Of a stretch of 37,404 nt of DNA, positions 6,731 to 27,187 are shown piece after piece (position 1 is the first letter of the stretch; each line of letters starts with the position of its first letter). A model generated the notes under the pieces. It was not told the DNA's origin. It worked only from the letters and a program-made list of their open reading frames with translations, and ran no database searches. This stretch comes from a virus, in IMG/VR virus record IMGVR_UViG_3300035160_000040, positions 1-37,404 of that record, one strand, 5' to 3'. The translations under genes and the position numbers were made by a program.

Positions 6731-8893
6731 TTATTTATTCTGTGCCATCTCAGATGTAATCCTATTAATCTCTCCCATGGCTTCTTGTTCTTTATTTTCA
6801 GATGAGCCTTCGGTTTCAGAGTTAATTTGATTTGCCTGAGCATGAATTTTGTTATCGACAGCTTCTCGATCCTCTCTTTCTTCGGCTTCAAGAGAACGAA
6901 CGAATTCCATCACTTCAAGCAAGCGACCTGTCTCCATTTGAGCTATCTCGGTGATTGTTTTAGCTCGATCAAGCGCTGCCTGAGCTCTATTCTGTTCGGC
7001 TTCGGATGCTCTCTCGGATCCTAGAGCTACATCAGAAATGACCCTTGCACGACGTTCTTGAGCAAGAGCCAAGTCTTGCTCCACTCTTGCATTACCAAGC
7101 TTAAGAGCGAGTTGTTCTTGTTGGTTGATTTTTTGCTGTTGTTGTTGAAGTTGTTCATTCTGTTTTGCAATTGCCCCTTGTAGATCTCCCGCTCCAACAG
7201 TTGGCAGAAATTCCACAATTTTATCTTGAGGAACATCGACAATGCCTTCGCGTTTGAGGTTGACTAATTCATAATAATAGGCATTTCTTTGAGATTTAGA
7301 ACGAATGCCCTCTTCAAGTACTGCATCATATTGCTCAAAATCTTTTTCATAAAATTGAGTCGTTGGCTCTTCTCCAATAATTCTTCGGATTTTATTCGGA
7401 TTATATTTACTTTGAATACATTTTACGACTAAGGAACCTAAACAAAGCTGGGATTCTTCGATATTATCGAACAGTTTTCGATTAGATCTAAGCCCCTGGC
7501 CGATTCTTACTTCTGCTAAACGACCTGATATTTGAGTATTTCCTTTTTCGTCAACGCCTAAAACGGATTCATTGACATTTGCTAAGGTTAGCGTCAATTG
7601 ATCTAAAATTTGCTGATATTCAACAAGAGATGGATTAGCGGCACCACCTGACAATTGTTGAACCGAATCTAATCCTTGAGGAGCATTTTCCGGATCTACC
7701 CCGATTAATTTATTTTGACCCGATTGTTGCATTTCTTCAGGGTCGGGGACAGAACCGATTAGATATTTAAATCCTGTTGAAATAGTAGAATCCATCATAT
7801 CTATTATTTTCATATGACGTTTATTAAACTGACGTTGGGCGCTCCATAACGTTGAAGAAATTCCTTGTATTCTTTGAGAGGGCATCCAAATAGACGGCTC
7901 CATGTAACAAACAAGAGGAACACAAGGGAAATTTTCAACAATTCCCGTCTTATCTTCTCCTTGATATACTCTTTCTCCGTTAAGCATAATGTTTAATTCA
8001 ATGTAAGGACGGTCTACCGTTTCGATTCGTAAAATAGGCGGAAGATTAGAAATATCCGATCCCGTTTCTGCGGCTACCTCATGCAAGGATTTAATCTTCT
8101 TGATACCTATTTTCAATTTTTGGATTTCATTAGGTTCAATATCTGTAATGTCTCTGAAAAATCCTGTAGCATCGTCAATGAGATATTTTCTCTTTCGCGT
8201 AGTCCTTCGATAATATTGATCGTAGGCCATCAAATTTCGATTGCGGGCTAAATTTGTGAAATTAGGATGGTAACTTAAAAATTTATCGTCTCTAAATGAA
8301 AGTTGAATGTTGTCAATTACACTCGGGTCAATAAATGGCAACAGGCCTTTTACCATATTCCTATCAAGAAGATCTCTGGTAATCAGATATGCGCAATCGG
8401 ATAGATTTATATTCTCAAAAGTAGGATCAAGATAAAAAGCATTGTATGTCCGTTTATAAAATGAGATTTCCCCATTGATAAAATCGCGACTATAATCCAT
8501 TTGAATTCCACACAATGAAATTCCCGACTTCATACATTCGTCGGCAGCATCTAAAAATGTCTTATATCCGTGTCCCTTTTCCCATACGTTATATTGAAGT
8601 TTAGTAAATTGATCGGATGTATTTTGATCCGATCCTTCTACGGGAGAAACTACAACAGACGGGAGATTATCTCTAAGATACCCCGAAAAGAATTGTAAAG
8701 GCCGTCTCATTATATTTAATTCAAGCGGTTCTCTACCCTGCTTAGAAAGTTCTCGCAATTCATTATCAGACCATGTATAACCTGATGCTGCCAATGTATA
8801 AACTTTTGCATTTGCAATAAAAGGAGCCCAAAAATCATGGGCATATCGGTAATTGTCTTGGAATTCTGAACGAATATCATTATCGGATAGCAT
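6731..8893 (-). CDS. Portal protein, P22 gp1-like
   Basis: A 720-residue protein close in length to P22 gp1. The N-terminus (WAPFIANAKVYTLAASG, GREPLELNIMRRPLQFFSGY) resembles the wing region of P22-type portals. The central part contains RDLLDRNMVKGLLPFID and MPSQRIQGISSTLWSAQRQF segments. The C-terminal about 180 residues are a long Gln/Glu/Arg-rich coiled region (from about residue 540), matching the helical barrel seen in P22-type portals. It is the first gene of the late operon; terminase lies elsewhere (11276-13172), separated by the accessory block. Confidence 0.85.
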   Translation of the reverse strand: MLSDNDIRSEFQDNYRYAHDFWAPFIANAKVYTLAASGYTWSDNELRELSKQGREPLELNIMRRPLQFFSGYLRDNLPSVVVSPVEGSDQNTSDQFTKLQYNVWEKGHGYKTFLDAADECMKSGISLCGIQMDYSRDFINGEISFYKRTYNAFYLDPTFENINLSDCAYLITRDLLDRNMVKGLLPFIDPSVIDNIQLSFRDDKFLSYHPNFTNLARNRNLMAYDQYYRRTTRKRKYLIDDATGFFRDITDIEPNEIQKLKIGIKKIKSLHEVAAETGSDISNLPPILRIETVDRPYIELNIMLNGERVYQGEDKTGIVENFPCVPLVCYMEPSIWMPSQRIQGISSTLWSAQRQFNKRHMKIIDMMDSTISTGFKYLIGSVPDPEEMQQSGQNKLIGVDPENAPQGLDSVQQLSGGAANPSLVEYQQILDQLTLTLANVNESVLGVDEKGNTQISGRLAEVRIGQGLRSNRKLFDNIEESQLCLGSLVVKCIQSKYNPNKIRRIIGEEPTTQFYEKDFEQYDAVLEEGIRSKSQRNAYYYELVNLKREGIVDVPQDKIVEFLPTVGAGDLQGAIAKQNEQLQQQQQKINQQEQLALKLGNARVEQDLALAQERRARVISDVALGSERASEAEQNRAQAALDRAKTITEIAQMETGRLLEVMEFVRSLEAEEREDREAVDNKIHAQANQINSETEGSSENKEQEAMGEINRITSEMAQNK

Positions 8894-8989
8894 AACTCTA
8901 TATTATTTATAGGATCATTTACTGCTAGTAATTATTTGATTTATTAAATTAACAATTAGCCTATGACGGCAAAAAAGGAATATCTAAAA

Positions 8990-9163
8990 ATGGAAAATAT
9001 ATTAACCGAGAAGAACATGCAAACTCTACACCGAATGTTTAATTTTATATTTGAGGAAAAAGCATTGTCCGAATATTTTAAGCTAGATGATTTAGACAGC
9101 GATGAATTAGAAGAGATTCTAATCAAAATTCAGCAAATGAATTTAATGAAATTAGTAAAATGA
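8990..9163 (+). CDS. Small acidic-helical plus-strand protein (57 aa)
   Basis: A plus-strand gene divergent from the portal. ATG 8990 follows AAGGA at 10 nt; an in-frame upstream ATG at 8963 would add nine residues but has no ribosome site. The product is helical with an acidic centre (LDDLDSDELEEIL) and a hydrophobic end. No family recognised. It may form a two-gene unit with the small membrane peptide at 9227. Small acidic proteins opposite the late operon could be regulators, but this is a guess. Confidence 0.4.
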   Translation: MENILTEKNMQTLHRMFNFIFEEKALSEYFKLDDLDSDELEEILIKIQQMNLMKLVK

Positions 9164-9226
9164 GAAAGCGGAAGCGATTTAATAGTTATGAGTAATTTTT
9201 GATTAGTTATATAGAGAACACGAAAA

Positions 9227-9355
9227 ATGAATCATGATTTAAAATTAATCATTTTTACATTTATTTACACACTTTTAATTTCAAAACTTATTTTTTTTAG
9301 AAATAAGAAAGAACCGACTAAAAAGACTAAATTTACTGTTTATAGAATTAAATAA
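9227..9355 (+). CDS. Single-span membrane micropeptide (42 aa)
   Basis: A 42-residue open frame with one hydrophobic helix (residues 7-24, LIIFTFIYTLLISKLIFF) followed by a basic tail (RNKKEPTKKTK). The stop at 9353-9355 is immediately followed by a terminator-like hairpin at 9356, which fits a real plus-strand gene end. The ribosome site is weak. Possible roles include a holin-like or accessory membrane peptide; evidence is limited. Confidence 0.35.
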   Translation: MNHDLKLIIFTFIYTLLISKLIFFRNKKEPTKKTKFTVYRIK

Positions 9356-9378
9356 TGGGATCCTAAAACAGAATCCCA
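9356..9378. terminator. Bidirectional hairpin between convergent small genes
   Basis: TGGGATCC pairs with GAATCCCA (8-bp stem with one G-U or mismatched pair, 7-nt loop). On the minus strand it is followed by a T-rich TTATTT stretch, downstream of the gene ending at 9385. On the plus strand it directly follows the stop at 9355. This is the expected place for a shared terminator between convergent transcripts. Confidence 0.55.
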
Positions 9379-9384
9379 CCGTAT

Positions 9385-9555
9385 CTATTTTTTCGGATAT
9401 ATTTTAAAGAATTTTTCTACATTTTTTTCAACTACCTCTAATATAATTTCTTTATCTATATTTTTGATAATCGTACAGTAATACAAAAATCCTTTCCTTA
9501 TTTCAATATCCATTAATGAATTTAATTCATCATTGTTTTGATTTAGTTTTTTCAT
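9385..9555 (-). CDS. Small helical protein downstream of the secreted peptide (56 aa)
   Basis: From ATG 9555 the product is 56 residues: MKKLNQNNDELNSLMDIEIR, then a short hydrophobic segment (FLYYCTII) and a lysine-rich end. The start lies one base after the TAA of the secreted-peptide gene, so translation is probably coupled. The longer frame starting at 9600 would overlap that gene and is disfavoured. As an operon partner of a secreted peptide it could be an immunity or export helper, but no family is recognised. Confidence 0.45.
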   Translation of the reverse strand: MKKLNQNNDELNSLMDIEIRKGFLYYCTIIKNIDKEIILEVVEKNVEKFFKIYPKK

Positions 9556-9556
9556 T

Positions 9557-9817
9557 TTATGGAGTCGGAGCCGCCAAAGCCGGAGCGCACGCGACAGCAC
9601 ACGCCGGGGCGAATCCGCCTAATGTAGCTCCTAAACAAATTGCCATACAGGATGCATAGGCTATCGGTCCCGCTTCGGCTTGTTTTGCATACATAGCCCC
9701 TGCCATCAGAATAGCCGGGATTGCAATTTTAGCGGCATTGCTTGCCATTTGCATCGGACTTGCCAACTGAAGTGAAGGCAAATATGATCTAACACTATTT
9801 AAAGAAATTGTATTCAT
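9557..9817 (-). CDS. Secreted four-cysteine hairpin peptide, possibly related to a eukaryote-associated family (86 aa)
   Basis: A strong AAAGGAGATATT site precedes ATG 9817. Residues about 25-49 form a hydrophobic segment ending QAEA, a good signal-peptidase site, so the mature product would be about 37 residues starting GPIAYASC. The mature part has cysteines at 57, 61, 73 and 77 (C-x3-C, 11 residues, C-x3-C), a classic two-helix disulfide hairpin, and ends ALAAPTP. The pattern GP.AY..C, Cys pairs and a terminal PTP resembles small proteins I recall from fungi, amoebae and other protists (sometimes annotated zygote-specific). That link is from memory and needs a search. It is flanked by unknown accessory genes and has its own operon partner. 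Confidence 0.7.
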   Translation of the reverse strand: MNTISLNSVRSYLPSLQLASPMQMASNAAKIAIPAILMAGAMYAKQAEAGPIAYASCMAICLGATLGGFAPACAVACAPALAAPTP

Positions 9818-10147
9818 AATATCTCCTTTCCGTTAAAAAAAAAACATCATGACATAAAGGAAAATTTTTCGTAAACAAAAAAAATATAATTTAAAATTTG
9901 GGATCCATTCGGAATTTTAAATGACATCGTGCATTTTCGGTTAAATGCAGACAAAAAAAAGGGATCCGTTAGGAACCCTTCCACGTCTAAAAAAGGAGGT
10001 TTTTGGCGTGTAATTTATCATTTTGTAACTCAACCGATTGGCGTCAGCTGAGGGGCCTGAGATGAAAGTCTTAAAGAACACTAACACATATTGTGTGTAT
10101 TGTTACTTAATTCTCTTATATCAAAGAAAAACATTTATAGCAACAAG
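9818..10147. other. 330-bp intergenic region with terminator and leader of the secreted-peptide operon
   Basis: No convincing gene is seen here. It contains the leader and ribosome site of the secreted peptide, an AT-rich stretch around 9870-9900 that may hold its promoter, the intrinsic terminator at 9953-9980, and a short ACACA/TGTGT hairpin at 10084-10096. A plus-strand AAGGAGG at 9993-9999 is noted but leads only to a 20-codon frame. Confidence 0.5.
9953..9980 (-). terminator. Intrinsic terminator after the domain-array genes
   Basis: On the minus strand AAGGGTTCC and GGATCCCTT form a 9-bp stem with one mismatch around a 4-nt loop, followed by eight U residues. It lies downstream of the gene ending at 10148 and before the leader of the secreted-peptide gene, so the latter needs its own promoter. 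Confidence 0.8.
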
Positions 10148-10387
10148 TTAATCCTCGTGATGTAGAAATGAGATATCTTCATGAGTCATTTCATCGTCGG
10201 AATCTAGCTTAAATATAGTGTAATGCCCACCTAGGCGATTAATAAAATGTCCTTCAAACCTATCTCCGTCTTGATAAAGTCTAAAATTAAATCCATCAAA
10301 TAAACTAGGATCTTTTCCATTCGTTTCGCAATAGCCTCTAATAGCTCTTAAAAATTGTATTGTATCCGTTTCCTTAATATCTCTCAT
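10148..10387 (-). CDS. Single-copy member of a repeated unknown domain (79 aa)
   Basis: A 79-residue protein that is one unit of the domain repeated three times in the adjacent gene: QFLRAIRGYCE at the start, then LFDGFNFRLYQ, DRFEGHFINRLGGHYTIFKL, and DSDDEMTHED. ATG 10387 overlaps the upstream stop by 4 nt (ATGA). The bases around its start (ACAAAACATATGAGAG) also match those around the start of the upstream gene, so both descend from one duplication. The domain looks like a small alpha-beta fold. Function is unknown; no catalytic motif is evident. Confidence 0.7.
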   Translation of the reverse strand: MRDIKETDTIQFLRAIRGYCETNGKDPSLFDGFNFRLYQDGDRFEGHFINRLGGHYTIFKLDSDDEMTHEDISFLHHED

Positions 10388-11235
10388 ATGTTTTGTGATG
10401 TCTCAGATACAATCATATTTTTCATTTCAACATCTTTATGAGTAATTCCACCGTCGGAATCTAGCTTAAATATTGCGCAATGTCCATCTAGGTGATTAAT
10501 AAAATGTCCCTCAAACAGATCTCCGTATTGATAAAATCTAAAATCGAATCCATCGAATACACTAAAATCTTTTCCATTCGCTTCGCAATAGTCTTTAACA
10601 GCTTTTAAAAATTGTTCTTTATCCATTTTCTTTGCTGTCATCCGCATATGTAAATCGTATAGAGTAGGGACCTTTTTTAATATCTTTAGTGTACCTTCTG
10701 GTGCATCACAGGCCATCACATTTCTCATTTCAACATCTTTATGAGTCATTTCATCGTCGGAATCTATCTTAAATATAGTGTAATACCCACCTAGGTGATT
10801 AATAAAATGTCCTTCAAACCTATCTACATATTGATAAAATCTAAAATCGAATCCATCGAATACACTAAAATCTTCTCCATTCGCTTCGCAATAGTCTTTA
10901 ACAGCTTTTAAAAATTGTGCTTTATCCATTTTCTTTGCTGTCATCCGTATATTTAAATCGTATAGAGTAAGGAAATCTTTTAATATCGTTAGTATGCCTT
11001 GTAGACCTTGTTTCGTGTCAACATCTTTATGAGTAATTCCACCGTCGGAATCTAGATTAAATATAGTGTAATGCAAATTTATGTAATTAATAAAATGGCC
11101 TTCAAACAGATCTCCGTTTTGATAAAATATAAAACCAAGTCCATCGAATACACTAAAATCTTTTCCATTCGCTTCGCAATAGTCTTTAACAGCTTTTAAA
11201 AATTGTGATGTATCCATTTTTTTAATACCTCTCAT
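10384..11235 (-). CDS. Triple-repeat protein of unknown domain (283 aa)
   Basis: A 283-residue protein with three tandem copies of a 96-101-residue unit (beginning near residues 7, 103 and 204). Each copy has QFLKAVKDYCEANG, FSVFDG, FYQ, FEGHFIN, and a SDxxxTHKDV ending. Linkers between copies contain LYDL.(I/M)RMTAKKMDK, and these retain ATG codons, as though former separate genes lost their stops. Copies 2 and 3 are closer to each other than to copy 1. It lies 40 bp downstream of terminase. Repeated exposed domains could bind a host or rival-phage factor; no known family is recognised. Confidence 0.7.
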   Translation of the reverse strand: MRGIKKMDTSQFLKAVKDYCEANGKDFSVFDGLGFIFYQNGDLFEGHFINYINLHYTIFNLDSDGGITHKDVDTKQGLQGILTILKDFLTLYDLNIRMTAKKMDKAQFLKAVKDYCEANGEDFSVFDGFDFRFYQYVDRFEGHFINHLGGYYTIFKIDSDDEMTHKDVEMRNVMACDAPEGTLKILKKVPTLYDLHMRMTAKKMDKEQFLKAVKDYCEANGKDFSVFDGFDFRFYQYGDLFEGHFINHLDGHCAIFKLDSDGGITHKDVEMKNMIVSETSQNI

Positions 11236-11275
11236 ATGTTTTGTAATACAGCTAAGGTTATATTCAATTGTTTTT

Positions 11276-12772
11276 TTAAATCATCCATTTTCTTTTTTCT
11301 ACAGTCTTTTTGTGTTTTTCTAATGCTCCTCCGAAACTTCCGACAGATTCAATATGAGAGACAGCCTGGCATGTATACTGGAAAGCGTCCGCGTAGTTAG
11401 ATTCAACTCCATGATACGGATCTTCCAAATATTTACCATATTGTTCAGACCATTTTTTTCTATATTTAGCCAATTGCTCGACCAGTGGCTTTACACGGTT
11501 CATGTTAAAAACACAACGGTCGAATTTAATTTTTGCATTGCTGATGTTGATTGATTTATCCGTGCGTTTTAATACACGGAATTTTGTATCTGTTCCACTA
11601 AACAATTTCTTGAATTCCCTCTCGTATGTATTTTCAACTATTATCCCGTCACGTCTTGCTGCATCGTGAGGCAAAAATATTGTGTGGTACCAATATCTTT
11701 TTTCCATCTGTAAAAATCGCGAATAGAAATCAACTCCCTTTCCGTTGTCGGCGTAATAATCAAAGATTCGTATTTCTCCGTGCACGACCTGAAAAAATAT
11801 TATAACCGTTAGATCATTAACGCCTATATCCATTGCTATATAAACGGGTTCTAATGCATCATAAGGAGATATATTTAGACAGCGGTTCTCTTGATGAGCC
11901 TTTTCTATGCAAATCTGAAAATAATAAGCGTCCGAATGAGAGATAAACGCCTCGGATACCGTTGAAGGAAATTCTTGTCGTAGCTTGTCTCCTAAAGTAT
12001 CTCGTTGAAATGCATACCAGTTGCGCTGTTCGTCGCTAATAGTAACGTTAGAATTTATTTCGATTTTATCAAAATAGTCCGTCAACTCGACTTCGTACTT
12101 TGCTTTGCGTTTCATTTTATATGACGGTTCATCATACCAAGGGAAAAAAAATAGCTTGTACTCCAGCTCGTTTAGATCGTCATTTCCTCTTATAACGGCT
12201 TGATTGACCATATCTGCGTAAAAGCCGGAGTTCCCCTCTCCTGTTGATTCAATGATGATCCTACCCGAACTGGAAACGGTTTGCAGAGTACCTGTTACAA
12301 CCTCTTCGGCTTTAATCGGATTTCTAGCGCATGTCTTCCCGAACTCGGATACCAAAACCAATTGGTAAGCACCCCCGCGTAATGTTGTGTCGACTCGAAG
12401 GAATGAACCGTTTGAAAATGTTATCTCACGCGCCGATCTCTGAACAATGCCAACCATTGATTTAGCGTAGGGAGTGATTGAATCCAGCGCATGTCCGATA
12501 ATTCGTTTAAAAATATGCTGTGCATGTTCGAGAGAATAAGATACGATTCCTGCCGCCAGATTAGCATTAAAAATAACTTCATCAAGTAGGTACAAAACGC
12601 TAAATGTACTCATTCCAAGTTGGCGTGCTTTTAGTATTAAATTTCTATTATGCAATCCATTTAATACATCTTCTTGGACACTATTTAATTTAAACCTAAT
12701 TGAATTGCCTTGTGTATTAACAATTCGATATAAATTATTCATCCTCCAATTTTTATCGGCAAATTTATACAT
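11276..12772 (-). CDS. terL: Terminase large subunit
   Basis: The DNA-packaging motor, 498 residues. Walker A-type motif LKARQLGMST at residues 47-56, Walker B-type LVLVSE at 138-143, and coupling motif ESTGEG at 175-180 define the ATPase. The C-terminal nuclease shows acidic positions in AMDIG (D315), LPHDAARRD (D370, D375) and NYADAFQY (D462). The start overlaps the small-subunit stop by 8 nt, indicating coupling; a later ATG (residue 11) lies directly next to a GGAGG. It acts with the small subunit and portal to fill heads. The packaging mode (headful or cohesive-end) cannot be read from sequence. Confidence 0.9.
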   Translation of the reverse strand: MYKFADKNWRMNNLYRIVNTQGNSIRFKLNSVQEDVLNGLHNRNLILKARQLGMSTFSVLYLLDEVIFNANLAAGIVSYSLEHAQHIFKRIIGHALDSITPYAKSMVGIVQRSAREITFSNGSFLRVDTTLRGGAYQLVLVSEFGKTCARNPIKAEEVVTGTLQTVSSSGRIIIESTGEGNSGFYADMVNQAVIRGNDDLNELEYKLFFFPWYDEPSYKMKRKAKYEVELTDYFDKIEINSNVTISDEQRNWYAFQRDTLGDKLRQEFPSTVSEAFISHSDAYYFQICIEKAHQENRCLNISPYDALEPVYIAMDIGVNDLTVIIFFQVVHGEIRIFDYYADNGKGVDFYSRFLQMEKRYWYHTIFLPHDAARRDGIIVENTYEREFKKLFSGTDTKFRVLKRTDKSINISNAKIKFDRCVFNMNRVKPLVEQLAKYRKKWSEQYGKYLEDPYHGVESNYADAFQYTCQAVSHIESVGSFGGALEKHKKTVEKRKWMI

Positions 12773-24967: not shown

Positions 24968-27187
24968 TTAAACCACCGATAATGTTGAACTAGTGCTTTC
25001 GACTACAAAATTTGTATTAGCAGTAATACATCTTAATTTTACTGCTTGATATTGCACCGTTGATGCAATATAACCTGTTATACCTGTAGTTGTGCTAGAA
25101 CTCGCATAATGTATTGTTTGACCTGCATTTTGAGCGACTTGCCACCCTCCGGCTCCTTTTCCGTCAACCTGAATCGTATCCCCTAGTGCTGCCGTTGCAG
25201 GCAGAGTTAAAGTTACAAGTCCTGCATTATTCGAGGTATATACAGAGTTGACAACCATTGAAGCGCTTGTACCTGTCACTTCTGTATAAATGTAAGAATC
25301 TATAGTTCTTCTAACAGTGCTTGAGTTAGTTGAATAAAAATAACTTCCGTCGTATTCAACCGCTCCAGCTTCCGGGGTAGTTAGATTTGTACCTGAAGTA
25401 AATTTTAAAGGAGCTGTGCTTGCTGTTGCCGTTCCGATTCCAAGATGCAAATAGGCCGTAGGAAATGTGCTTGAGCTAGCAGGTTTTACATATAGACCCG
25501 CATCATCTAATGTCATTCTCAATACATTCGTAGTGTTGAAAAAAATATTTTTACCCTCGGTGAAAGCGCCTCCTGTCGAAAGTAAAAATTCGATAAATGT
25601 GTATGTAACAGGTGTTGCACTAGCGCCTTCAATGCGGCCTGTAAATGGAGAACCACCGGGGCCATGAAGACCGATCCATGAATTGGTCCCCGTGTCGTTT
25701 AGTTGAAATTGCTCGGCAATCGAATCAATGGTTACAACCATTTGAGATATAGAATCATCAAAAAATACTAATGAATCATTGGTCGTTGAGTTATCGACTC
25801 CTATAACCCATCTTCTGCCCGGTACGGCCAGTTGCAATCCTGCATCTCCGGTACTTGCTTGTTGTATAGTTAAACCTAATGTCGTGGTTCCGATTATAGT
25901 GGTATTGCTTTCGTATACATGCAAAGGAGATCCGGGGGTTGCCGTGCCTGCGCCTACTCTGTTATTAGTCGCATCTACATATAAAACATCAGTATCTACT
26001 ACAAGCGTTCCACCTGTCGCTCCATCAATTGTCATAGATGTCACACCTGTCATATTGTCGGTGTCGTCTATTATAATAGAACTATTTTGAATTAATTTCC
26101 CTGTGACTCCATCGAATCTCGCTATCGCATTGTCTGTAGCGCTTGCGGGTCCAACAACATCTCCGTTATTTAATGCCGATATAGTTATACTTCCCGCCGC
26201 ATTGACTACATTTATTCCCGTTCCTGCCGTCAATGAAGCCGTAACAGGAGCTAATCCGGTTGATCCGATTATGAGTTGGCCGTCCGTCAAAGCAGAGGTA
26301 TAACCTATCGCGCTTGTTGTCCCTTGACCATAAGCTAGCCCATTTGATGTTTGTGTTCCTAATTTGCCGGTGAGTCCCGATGGCGTTATACTTCTGATAG
26401 AATCCGTCCCGGCAATTGTTTCTGCTACGGTAGCCAATTCCACTACGCCTAACGTTGTCGGGGTAGATTGCAAACCGAAAATAGACAAGCTTCCCGGGCC
26501 TAAAGCGCTTGAAATCCCATCTCCTGTAGTGATGGATGCAGCCACCGGAGGCGCTCCGAATGAACCTATAACTAAATATCCGCTATTTAAAGCTGAAGTA
26601 TATCCGATAGCTCCCGTTGTCCCTTGGCCGTAGGCCATGCCATTTGATGTTTGTGTTCCTAATTTGCTTGTTAGCGTCGAAGGAGTTATAGCTTTAGTTG
26701 CCTCGGTTCCGGCAATACTATCGGCGCTTGTAGCCAATTTAAGAACTCCGATTTGTGCTGCAGTTGCTTGAACACCTGTTACCGCAATAATGTTTGAAGG
26801 GGATTGACCTGAGGTTACGATTCCGTTGGCACCTAAAATTTCCACTTGTCCGGATCCGTTTGGAATAACTGCGGGAGATCCGTCATTGGATAGCAAGTTT
26901 ACGATTCCGTATCCCCCTCCGACTAATGCTACGAATCCATCCGTTACAGTAAAATTTGCACTGTCAAAGGCGCACATTCCAATATTGGCTGTTCCTACCG
27001 TTCCTGCTGCCGTTGCGAGTTCTCCCGAAATAGTCACAATATTTGTGGAACCGCTTGTATCTATCCCCTCTCCGCCGACAACTTGTAATACGCCTGCAAT
27101 AGGAATCGCATTTTGCGAGTCCGTTTGAAATTCCTTAGCAACACTAGGATTTGATTGAGTAATATCGACAAATCCGCCCTGACTCAT
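24968..27187 (-). CDS. Large tail-fibre protein with 100-residue repeats (739 aa)
   Basis: A 739-residue fibre with the same N-terminal attachment module as the neighbouring fibre, then a 100-residue unit repeated twice (LGVVELATVAETIAGTDSIR, KLGTQTSNGLAYGQGTTSA; DNA period exactly 300 bp near 26341 and 26641). The AGTD..R.ITPS.L motif is usual in phage short-fibre repeats. The C-terminal domain (LPATAALGDTIQVDGKGAGG, GQTIHYASS) matches the other fibre. It starts just after the stop of a coiled-coil gene. Host-binding specificity cannot be read from sequence. Confidence 0.7.
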   Translation of the reverse strand: MSQGGFVDITQSNPSVAKEFQTDSQNAIPIAGVLQVVGGEGIDTSGSTNIVTISGELATAAGTVGTANIGMCAFDSANFTVTDGFVALVGGGYGIVNLLSNDGSPAVIPNGSGQVEILGANGIVTSGQSPSNIIAVTGVQATAAQIGVLKLATSADSIAGTEATKAITPSTLTSKLGTQTSNGMAYGQGTTGAIGYTSALNSGYLVIGSFGAPPVAASITTGDGISSALGPGSLSIFGLQSTPTTLGVVELATVAETIAGTDSIRSITPSGLTGKLGTQTSNGLAYGQGTTSAIGYTSALTDGQLIIGSTGLAPVTASLTAGTGINVVNAAGSITISALNNGDVVGPASATDNAIARFDGVTGKLIQNSSIIIDDTDNMTGVTSMTIDGATGGTLVVDTDVLYVDATNNRVGAGTATPGSPLHVYESNTTIIGTTTLGLTIQQASTGDAGLQLAVPGRRWVIGVDNSTTNDSLVFFDDSISQMVVTIDSIAEQFQLNDTGTNSWIGLHGPGGSPFTGRIEGASATPVTYTFIEFLLSTGGAFTEGKNIFFNTTNVLRMTLDDAGLYVKPASSSTFPTAYLHLGIGTATASTAPLKFTSGTNLTTPEAGAVEYDGSYFYSTNSSTVRRTIDSYIYTEVTGTSASMVVNSVYTSNNAGLVTLTLPATAALGDTIQVDGKGAGGWQVAQNAGQTIHYASSSTTTGITGYIASTVQYQAVKLRCITANTNFVVESTSSTLSVV
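26290..26690. repeat. 300-bp period repeat in the 739-aa fibre gene
   Basis: The stretch beginning CATTTGATGTTTGTGTTCCT occurs at 26341 and again at 26641, exactly 300 bp apart, marking two copies of a 100-residue fibre unit. Confidence 0.8.

What the first reader, a model, noticed from the sequence alone, without database searches (positions are those of the whole stretch)
9557..9817. Phage-encoded secreted four-cysteine peptide with a eukaryote-associated look
A strong ribosome site, a signal peptide ending in AEA, and a 37-residue mature part with C-x3-C...C-x3-C, a GP.AY start and an APTP end are seen. From memory, this layout occurs in small proteins of fungi, amoebae and other protists. 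A phage carrying one, in its own transcription unit, could modify the host's eukaryotic partner or rival bacteria.
Basis: partly seen in the sequence, partly recalled or inferred. Interest (0 to 1): 0.8.

Follow-up and report, generated by a model that had tools for sequence, protein, structure and literature searches.

The report
Phage-carried chlamydial secreted hairpin peptide
A phage that probably infects environmental relatives of Chlamydia carries a tiny export-tagged gene for a cysteine-stapled two-helix peptide, and the same undescribed peptide family is found in at least six other phage records and, often in several copies, in about one in nine of the chlamydial species genomes searched, so it is real, shared between phage and host, and of unknown target.

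Summary
Window 9817-9557 (minus strand) encodes an 86-aa precursor with a strong ribosome site, a Sec-type leader ending AEA and a 37-aa mature part with CX3C-X11-CX3C. It is not chance: a profile built only from chlamydial proteins scores it 62.7 bits, against 15.2 for the best of 2,000 shuffles. It belongs to an undescribed family found in other tailed-phage records (L035/L040, L057 with two copies, L094, L095, L162, L211) and 26 of 234 Chlamydiota species genomes (about 50 copies, chromosomal where context was read). Controls gave 0/398 Pseudomonadota, 0/229 Bacillota and 1 weak hit in 232 Bacteroidota. No Pfam, NCBIfam, PHROG, PADLOC or PDB family covers it. Framework: GPxxY, CX3C, variable loop, CX3C, nine residues, ending in P. 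AlphaFold predicts a helical hairpin (pLDDT 85). Three divergent relatives have a third cysteine on both arms at once, which points to paired disulfide rungs. In the window it sits in a 2.4-kb cargo gap between terminase and portal that is usually ~84 bp. The fungal/protist kinship could not be tested. Likely role: phage cargo exported to act in or beyond the host envelope; target unknown.

The parts
9557..9817 (-). 86-aa precursor of the exported hairpin peptide
   Evidence: chlamydia-only profile 62.7 bits
9671..9817 (-). 49-residue leader: N-terminal tail, positively charged n-region, hydrophobic core IAIPAILMAGAMYA, c-region ending A-E-A (predicted signal peptidase I site)
   Evidence: AEA/ADA/VEA/ANA/ASA at the same place in relatives; leader evolves faster than the mature part in chlamydial orthologues
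9557..9670 (-). 37-residue mature part (with stop codon): GPxxY, CX3C, X11, CX3C, nine-residue tail ending PTP; predicted helices 2-16 and 21-33
9823..9829 (-). Shine-Dalgarno sequence AAAGGAG, five bases upstream of the ATG
   Evidence: sequence read directly
9385..9555 (-). 56-aa ORF directly downstream, one base after the peptide's stop (TAA-A-ATG): probable translational coupling; no detectable relative
9354..9380 (-). terminator-like hairpin closing the two-gene unit (-14.4 kcal/mol, z -4.2)
9962..9978 (-). terminator-like hairpin closing the upstream unit (-12.1 kcal/mol, z -2.2), separating it from the peptide unit
8894..11275 (.). 2.4-kb cargo gap between portal (6731-8893) and terminase large subunit (11276-12772); the two are about 84 bp apart (median) in 51 relatives

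Best explanation
The gene is a cargo ('moron') gene of a P22-portal-type tailed phage that most probably infects environmental Chlamydiota. It encodes a member of an undescribed family of Sec-exported peptides shared by chlamydiae and their phages. Proposed working: the precursor is exported, signal peptidase I cuts after AEA, and in the oxidising periplasm the mature peptide folds into two helices stapled by stacked disulfides (C8-C28 and C12-C24 of the mature part), giving an uncharged, hydrophobic hairpin with a variable loop. It then acts outside the cytoplasm, most likely in or on the envelope of the infected chlamydial cell (surface change, exclusion of other phages or competitors), or in the inclusion. 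Shown: the ORF, the family, its taxonomic restriction among the groups tested, the framework, the paired cysteine changes, the cargo position. Inferred: export, cleavage, disulfide pairing, host. Guess: the target (own host's envelope about 0.4, rival chlamydiae or other bacteria about 0.25, eukaryotic host about 0.25).
For: Chlamydia-only profile finds the window peptide and every phage relative. 26/234 Chlamydiota genomes, about 50 copies, against 0/398, 0/229 and 1 weak/232 in three other phyla. A collection-wide DNA pattern scan over 84,980 species gave 15 loci; the only five that encode a small exported protein are all Chlamydiota. Chromosomal context in hosts: suf genes, frr, dTDP-sugar genes (gene names from my reading of the translations). 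Mature part under purifying selection (dN/dS 0.02-0.23; leader 0.39-0.72) in three orthologues. Paired 2+2 or 3+3 cysteine arms. Helical hairpin at pLDDT 85 for the mature part. Cargo gap. Host: portal found in 9/234 Chlamydiota, 0/299 Pseudomonadota, 0 of 50,697 phage records. Chlamydiae have a DsbA/DsbB pair and disulfide-dependent development (PMC6752827).
Against: No functional data. Export and cleavage rest on sequence features; the leader has a longer N-terminal tail (about 30 residues before the hydrophobic core) than usual Sec leaders. The AlphaFold alignments are shallow (11-12 rows) and Foldseek finds no solved match. Host assignment is indirect (portal identity 26-33%, many genomes are MAGs). 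The 56-aa neighbour has no relative, and the partner seen next to other members is not recognisable in the window.
Confidence: 0.62

Rival explanations
1. Bacteriocin-like pair: the exported hairpin is a membrane-active toxin against competing chlamydiae or co-infecting bacteria, and the neighbouring cytosolic protein gives immunity or helps export.
For: A DUF2059-like 110-126-aa ORF without leader lies directly downstream of the peptide in six chlamydial loci (L121, L122, L123, L124, L129, L080) and between the two copies in phage L057. The window has a coupled 56-aa ORF in that place. The mature part is hydrophobic, and peptide genes often come in tandem pairs (G002, G004, G158).
Against: The window's 56-aa ORF shows no similarity to the partner. 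The partner profile found no such ORF beside the peptides of L035/L040, L094, L095 or most other chlamydial copies, and the L211 peptide appears monocistronic. The DUF2059 score is below the curated cut-off. No charge, unlike most antimicrobial peptides.
Confidence: 0.2
2. Effector toward the eukaryotic partner: the peptide mimics small secreted proteins of fungi, amoebae and other protists, is released into the inclusion or host cell and changes the eukaryotic host so that phage and bacterium benefit.
For: Family is confined, among groups tested, to obligate intracellular bacteria of protists and animals and to phages. Multi-copy with variable loops, as effectors often are.
Against: No eukaryotic sequence could be searched; Pfam and PDB gave nothing; a Sec leader gets the peptide to the periplasm but no outer-membrane exit route is shown.
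Confidence: 0.2
3. Envelope structural peptide: it is oxidised into the disulfide-linked outer layer of the chlamydial infectious form, like the cysteine-rich envelope proteins.
For: Chlamydial envelope proteins are heavily disulfide cross-linked (PMC6752827); the peptide is predicted to be exported and is cysteine-rich.
Against: Paired 2+2/3+3 cysteines suggest internal pairing with none left over; no lipobox as in OmcA; family not detected in most Chlamydiota; patchy and phage-borne.
Confidence: 0.1
4. Holin or other lysis peptide: the leader stays as a membrane helix and the protein helps lysis.
For: Weak PHROG holin match to residues 23-70 (E 0.028); hydrophobic throughout.
Against: Conserved AxA site, conserved cysteines and chromosomal multi-copy occurrence in bacteria; mature part far more constrained than the leader.
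Confidence: 0.05

Closest known systems
Alpha-hairpinins (plant antimicrobial peptides; 4C motif CX3CX4-20CX3C and 6C motif CX3CX3CX4-20CX3CX3C, PMC11591084)
   Same: Same cysteine framework in both 4C and 6C forms, same predicted helix-loop-helix, secreted precursor.
   Different: Plant family, antimicrobial peptides with positive surface charge; the phage/chlamydial peptides are mostly uncharged and hydrophobic with fixed GP start and P end; no sequence relation shown. Works like, not a member.
Eukaryotic small secreted proteins with a GPxAY...CxxxC...APTP layout (often labelled 'zygote-specific', from memory)
   Same: From memory: leader, GP start, CxxxC, CxxxC near the end, PTP end.
   Different: Not testable here; remembered forms are longer with additional cysteines. 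The label itself is used in Daphnia (PMC9548574) but no sequence was compared.
Small Tim chaperones (twin CX3C)
   Same: CX3C-X11-CX3C spacing and helical hairpin.
   Different: Those lack an export leader and have charged amphipathic helices (own knowledge); no sequence match in PDB.
Phage morons for superinfection exclusion or host conversion
   Same: Discrete unit with its own terminator inserted between conserved morphogenesis genes; small exported product; different genome sites in different phages.
   Different: No known moron family matched in PHROGs; promoter and expression not shown.
Chlamydial cysteine-rich envelope proteins (OmcA/OmcB)
   Same: Exported, cysteine-rich, chlamydial.
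   Different: No lipobox, different cysteine pattern, predicted hairpin fold, patchy occurrence.

Membership tests
Chlamydial/phage exported CX3C hairpin family (defined here, alignments A2-A4) | scores with a profile built only from chlamydial members | tested here: met
   62.7 bits, best shuffle 15.2
Chlamydial/phage exported CX3C hairpin family (defined here, alignments A2-A4) | GP start, seven residues before first Cys, CX3C-Xn-CX3C, nine residues after last Cys, final P | tested here: met
   window 7 / 2+2 / gap 11 / 9
Chlamydial/phage exported CX3C hairpin family (defined here, alignments A2-A4) | Sec-type leader ending AxA | tested here: met
   sequence features only; no SignalP available
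Alpha-hairpinins | CX3C-X4-20-CX3C motif | tested here: met
   X11; motif definition from PMC11591084
Alpha-hairpinins | helix-loop-helix with C1-C4 and C2-C3 disulfides | tested here: inconclusive
   helices predicted at pLDDT 85, disulfides only inferred from paired cysteine gain
Alpha-hairpinins | positive charge / sequence homology to plant members | tested here: not met
   no charged residue; no PDB match by sequence or fold
Eukaryotic GPxAY/APTP small secreted proteins | sequence homology to fungal or protist members | not testable with these tools
   no eukaryotic sequence collection; a six-cysteine eukaryote-style pattern (from memory) gave nothing in viral contigs
Small Tim (twin CX3C) chaperones | no export leader, mitochondrial import | tested here: not met
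   hydrophobic leader with AEA site present
Holin (phrog_1299) | significant profile match over the family | tested here: not met
   E 0.028, residues 23-70 only
TIGR04117 CxxxC radical-SAM target peptides | curated cut-off of 50 bits | tested here: not met
   11.4 bits
OmcA-type envelope lipoprotein | lipobox cysteine at the cleavage site | tested here: not met
   first mature residue is G, first Cys at mature position 8

The most novel reading that the evidence does not exclude
A three-way traded effector scaffold: chlamydiae, their phages and their eukaryotic hosts share one family of disulfide-laddered hairpin peptides, and the phages carry it as cargo that conditions the eukaryotic cell or the chlamydial community during infection.
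Probability: 0.15. Interest if true: 0.9.

Novelty: new variant of a known kind. Interest (0 to 1): 0.6.

Why it matters
My library searches found no paper describing cargo genes of tailed phages of environmental chlamydiae. This is a peptide family with no entry in the libraries searched, traded between obligate intracellular bacteria and several different phage types, with a strict framework, a variable loop and paired addition of cysteine rungs. It gives a concrete, easily synthesised object for asking whether phages of intracellular bacteria carry genes that act at the bacterium's envelope or on the eukaryotic cell around it, and it offers a marker for chlamydial phages in metagenomes.

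Tried and rejected
Direct searches with the single sequence found nothing: viral contigs by tblastn-confirmed patterns, 50,697 phages and 72,556 plasmids by tblastn, PDB, Pfam, NCBIfam, PADLOC. The profile-pattern scan of genome contigs with A1 also failed; degenerate DNA patterns of the GPxxYxxCxxxC motif succeeded. Eukaryote-style six-cysteine pattern in viral contigs: no hit. Foldseek against PDB and BFVD: no useful match. Holin, small Tim, radical-SAM target and OmcA readings rejected on the features listed under membership. Idea that the window's 56-aa ORF is the DUF2059-like partner: no similarity. Phage-borne peptide copies beside the chlamydial portal homologues: none found in the nine regions fetched. 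Pattern hits outside Chlamydiota and the named phages were inspected and are out-of-frame, stop-containing or inside unrelated ORFs. Family tree too short for firm placement; the phage sequences form two clusters needing two label changes, and only four branches are well supported. Literature searches for the family or for tailed phages of environmental chlamydiae gave nothing direct.

Full report
The window is a whole IMG/VR record of 37,404 bases with a P22-type portal (PF16510 E 8e-43), a terminase large subunit and a major head protein: a tailed phage.

Single-sequence searches find nothing, so the question was whether the pattern exists elsewhere. The terminase fetched 70 related phage loci, and a six-frame search of these found clear relatives in L035, L040 and, twice, in L057. 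Aligning them gave an invariant core with AGP and the cysteine pattern. A DNA pattern for A[ED]AGPxxYxxCxxxC over the whole genome collection returned 15 loci; translating them showed that the five encoding a small exported protein are all Chlamydiota (L073, L074, L080, L082 Sacchlamyda, L087), whereas the others are out-of-frame chance matches. Similar scans of viral contigs added L094, L095, L162 and L211.

A profile of these (A2) matched 26 of 234 Chlamydiota genomes at E <= 0.001 and an enlarged profile (A3) the same 26, with about 50 copies, up to six per genome. The same profiles gave 0 of 398 Pseudomonadota, 1 weak stop-containing hit in 232 Bacteroidota and 0 of 229 Bacillota. Where context was read, the bacterial copies lie among ordinary chromosomal genes (suf operon, frr, sugar-nucleotide genes, as I read the translations), often as tandem pairs. 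In the reverse test, a profile built only from bacterial copies scored the window ORF 62.7 bits; 2,000 shuffles reached at most 15.2 and the next window ORF 6.5. So kinship is established, and the direction of transfer is not.

The mature framework is strict: in nearly all members with the GP start there are seven residues before the first cysteine, CX3C, a loop of 10-25, CX3C and nine or ten residues. Most phage members have no charged residue there. Among three close chlamydial orthologues the mature part has dN/dS 0.02-0.23 and the leader 0.39-0.72 (short sequences, simple method), as expected for a cleaved leader and a constrained secreted part. AlphaFold gives the mature peptide two helices, 2-16 and 21-33, at mean pLDDT 85. 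Independent support for a hairpin with facing cysteines comes from L211, the closest relative: compared with the window it has one additional CX3 unit in each arm, CX3CX3C-X11-CX3CX3C. Two other members, L112 and L127, are also 3+3. Apart from the two cysteine-dense members L073 and L126, all others counted are 2+2, and no 2+3 arrangement was seen. Arms that gain cysteines together are what stacked inter-helix disulfides would require. The framework equals the 4C and 6C motifs used to recognise plant alpha-hairpinins (PMC11591084), but charge and homology do not match, so this is a likeness of design only.

Genomic setting. In 51 relatives the terminase and portal genes are about 84 bases apart (median); in the window 2.4 kb of extra genes lie between them, including the peptide. 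Terminator-like hairpins lie on both sides of the peptide unit. In L211 the peptide sits elsewhere, next to other small genes, with its own strong ribosome site and an inverted repeat after the stop. This is how mobile cargo genes behave. A further recurrent feature is a DUF2059-like cytosolic ORF directly downstream of the peptide in six chlamydial loci and in phage L057; the window has instead a coupled 56-aa ORF without relatives. This leaves a toxin-immunity or peptide-helper pair open as a rival.

Host. The portal is found in 9 of 234 Chlamydiota genomes (26-33% identity), in none of 299 Pseudomonadota, and in none of 50,697 phage records. With the peptide family this makes a chlamydial host likely, but it is indirect and many of the genomes are MAGs.

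Function. Shown are the gene, its family, its restriction, its framework and its cargo position. Inferred are export, cleavage, oxidation (Chlamydia trachomatis has a DsbA-DsbB pair and relies on disulfides, PMC6752827) and the host. The target is a guess: the bacterial envelope is the nearest place an exported hydrophobic hairpin would act, and phage cargo commonly acts there; competition and action on the eukaryotic cell remain open.

Noticed in passing
window 10148-11235 (-): Tandemly repeated protein units of about 90-100 residues (QFLKAVKDYCEANGKDFSVFDGFDF...GHFINHLGGHYTIFKLDSDD), three in one ORF plus one in the next; only short, low-coverage library matches.
   Followed up: partly
window 24968-27187 (-): Fibre-like protein with a weak match to the N-terminal domain of the chlamydial plasmid antigen Pgp3 (E 0.004, below cut-off), a hint at the host.
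   Followed up: no
L142 3478-6066 and L149 571-3252: In two chlamydial genomes (G004, G005) the peptide genes lie beside a caspase-like/TPR protein of about 860-890 aa.
   Followed up: partly
L144 6135-6503, L145, L150, L124, L129, L080, L057 9649-9999: DUF2059-like cytosolic partner ORF directly downstream of the hairpin peptide gene in chlamydiae and one phage.
   Followed up: yes
L130, L136, L137, L134: Chlamydial relatives with the same leader type and a CX3C-X13-CX3C-like pattern but a highly charged mature part, suggesting a wider superfamily of exported twin-CX3C peptides.
   Followed up: partly
L007 5917-6213 (+): Related phage with a different exported peptide (CX2C...CX3C) followed by a 43-aa membrane-like ORF.
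   Followed up: no
L057 14456-15332: Phage with a ParA-type ATPase followed by a small protein that resembles chlamydial plasmid genes from memory.
   Followed up: no
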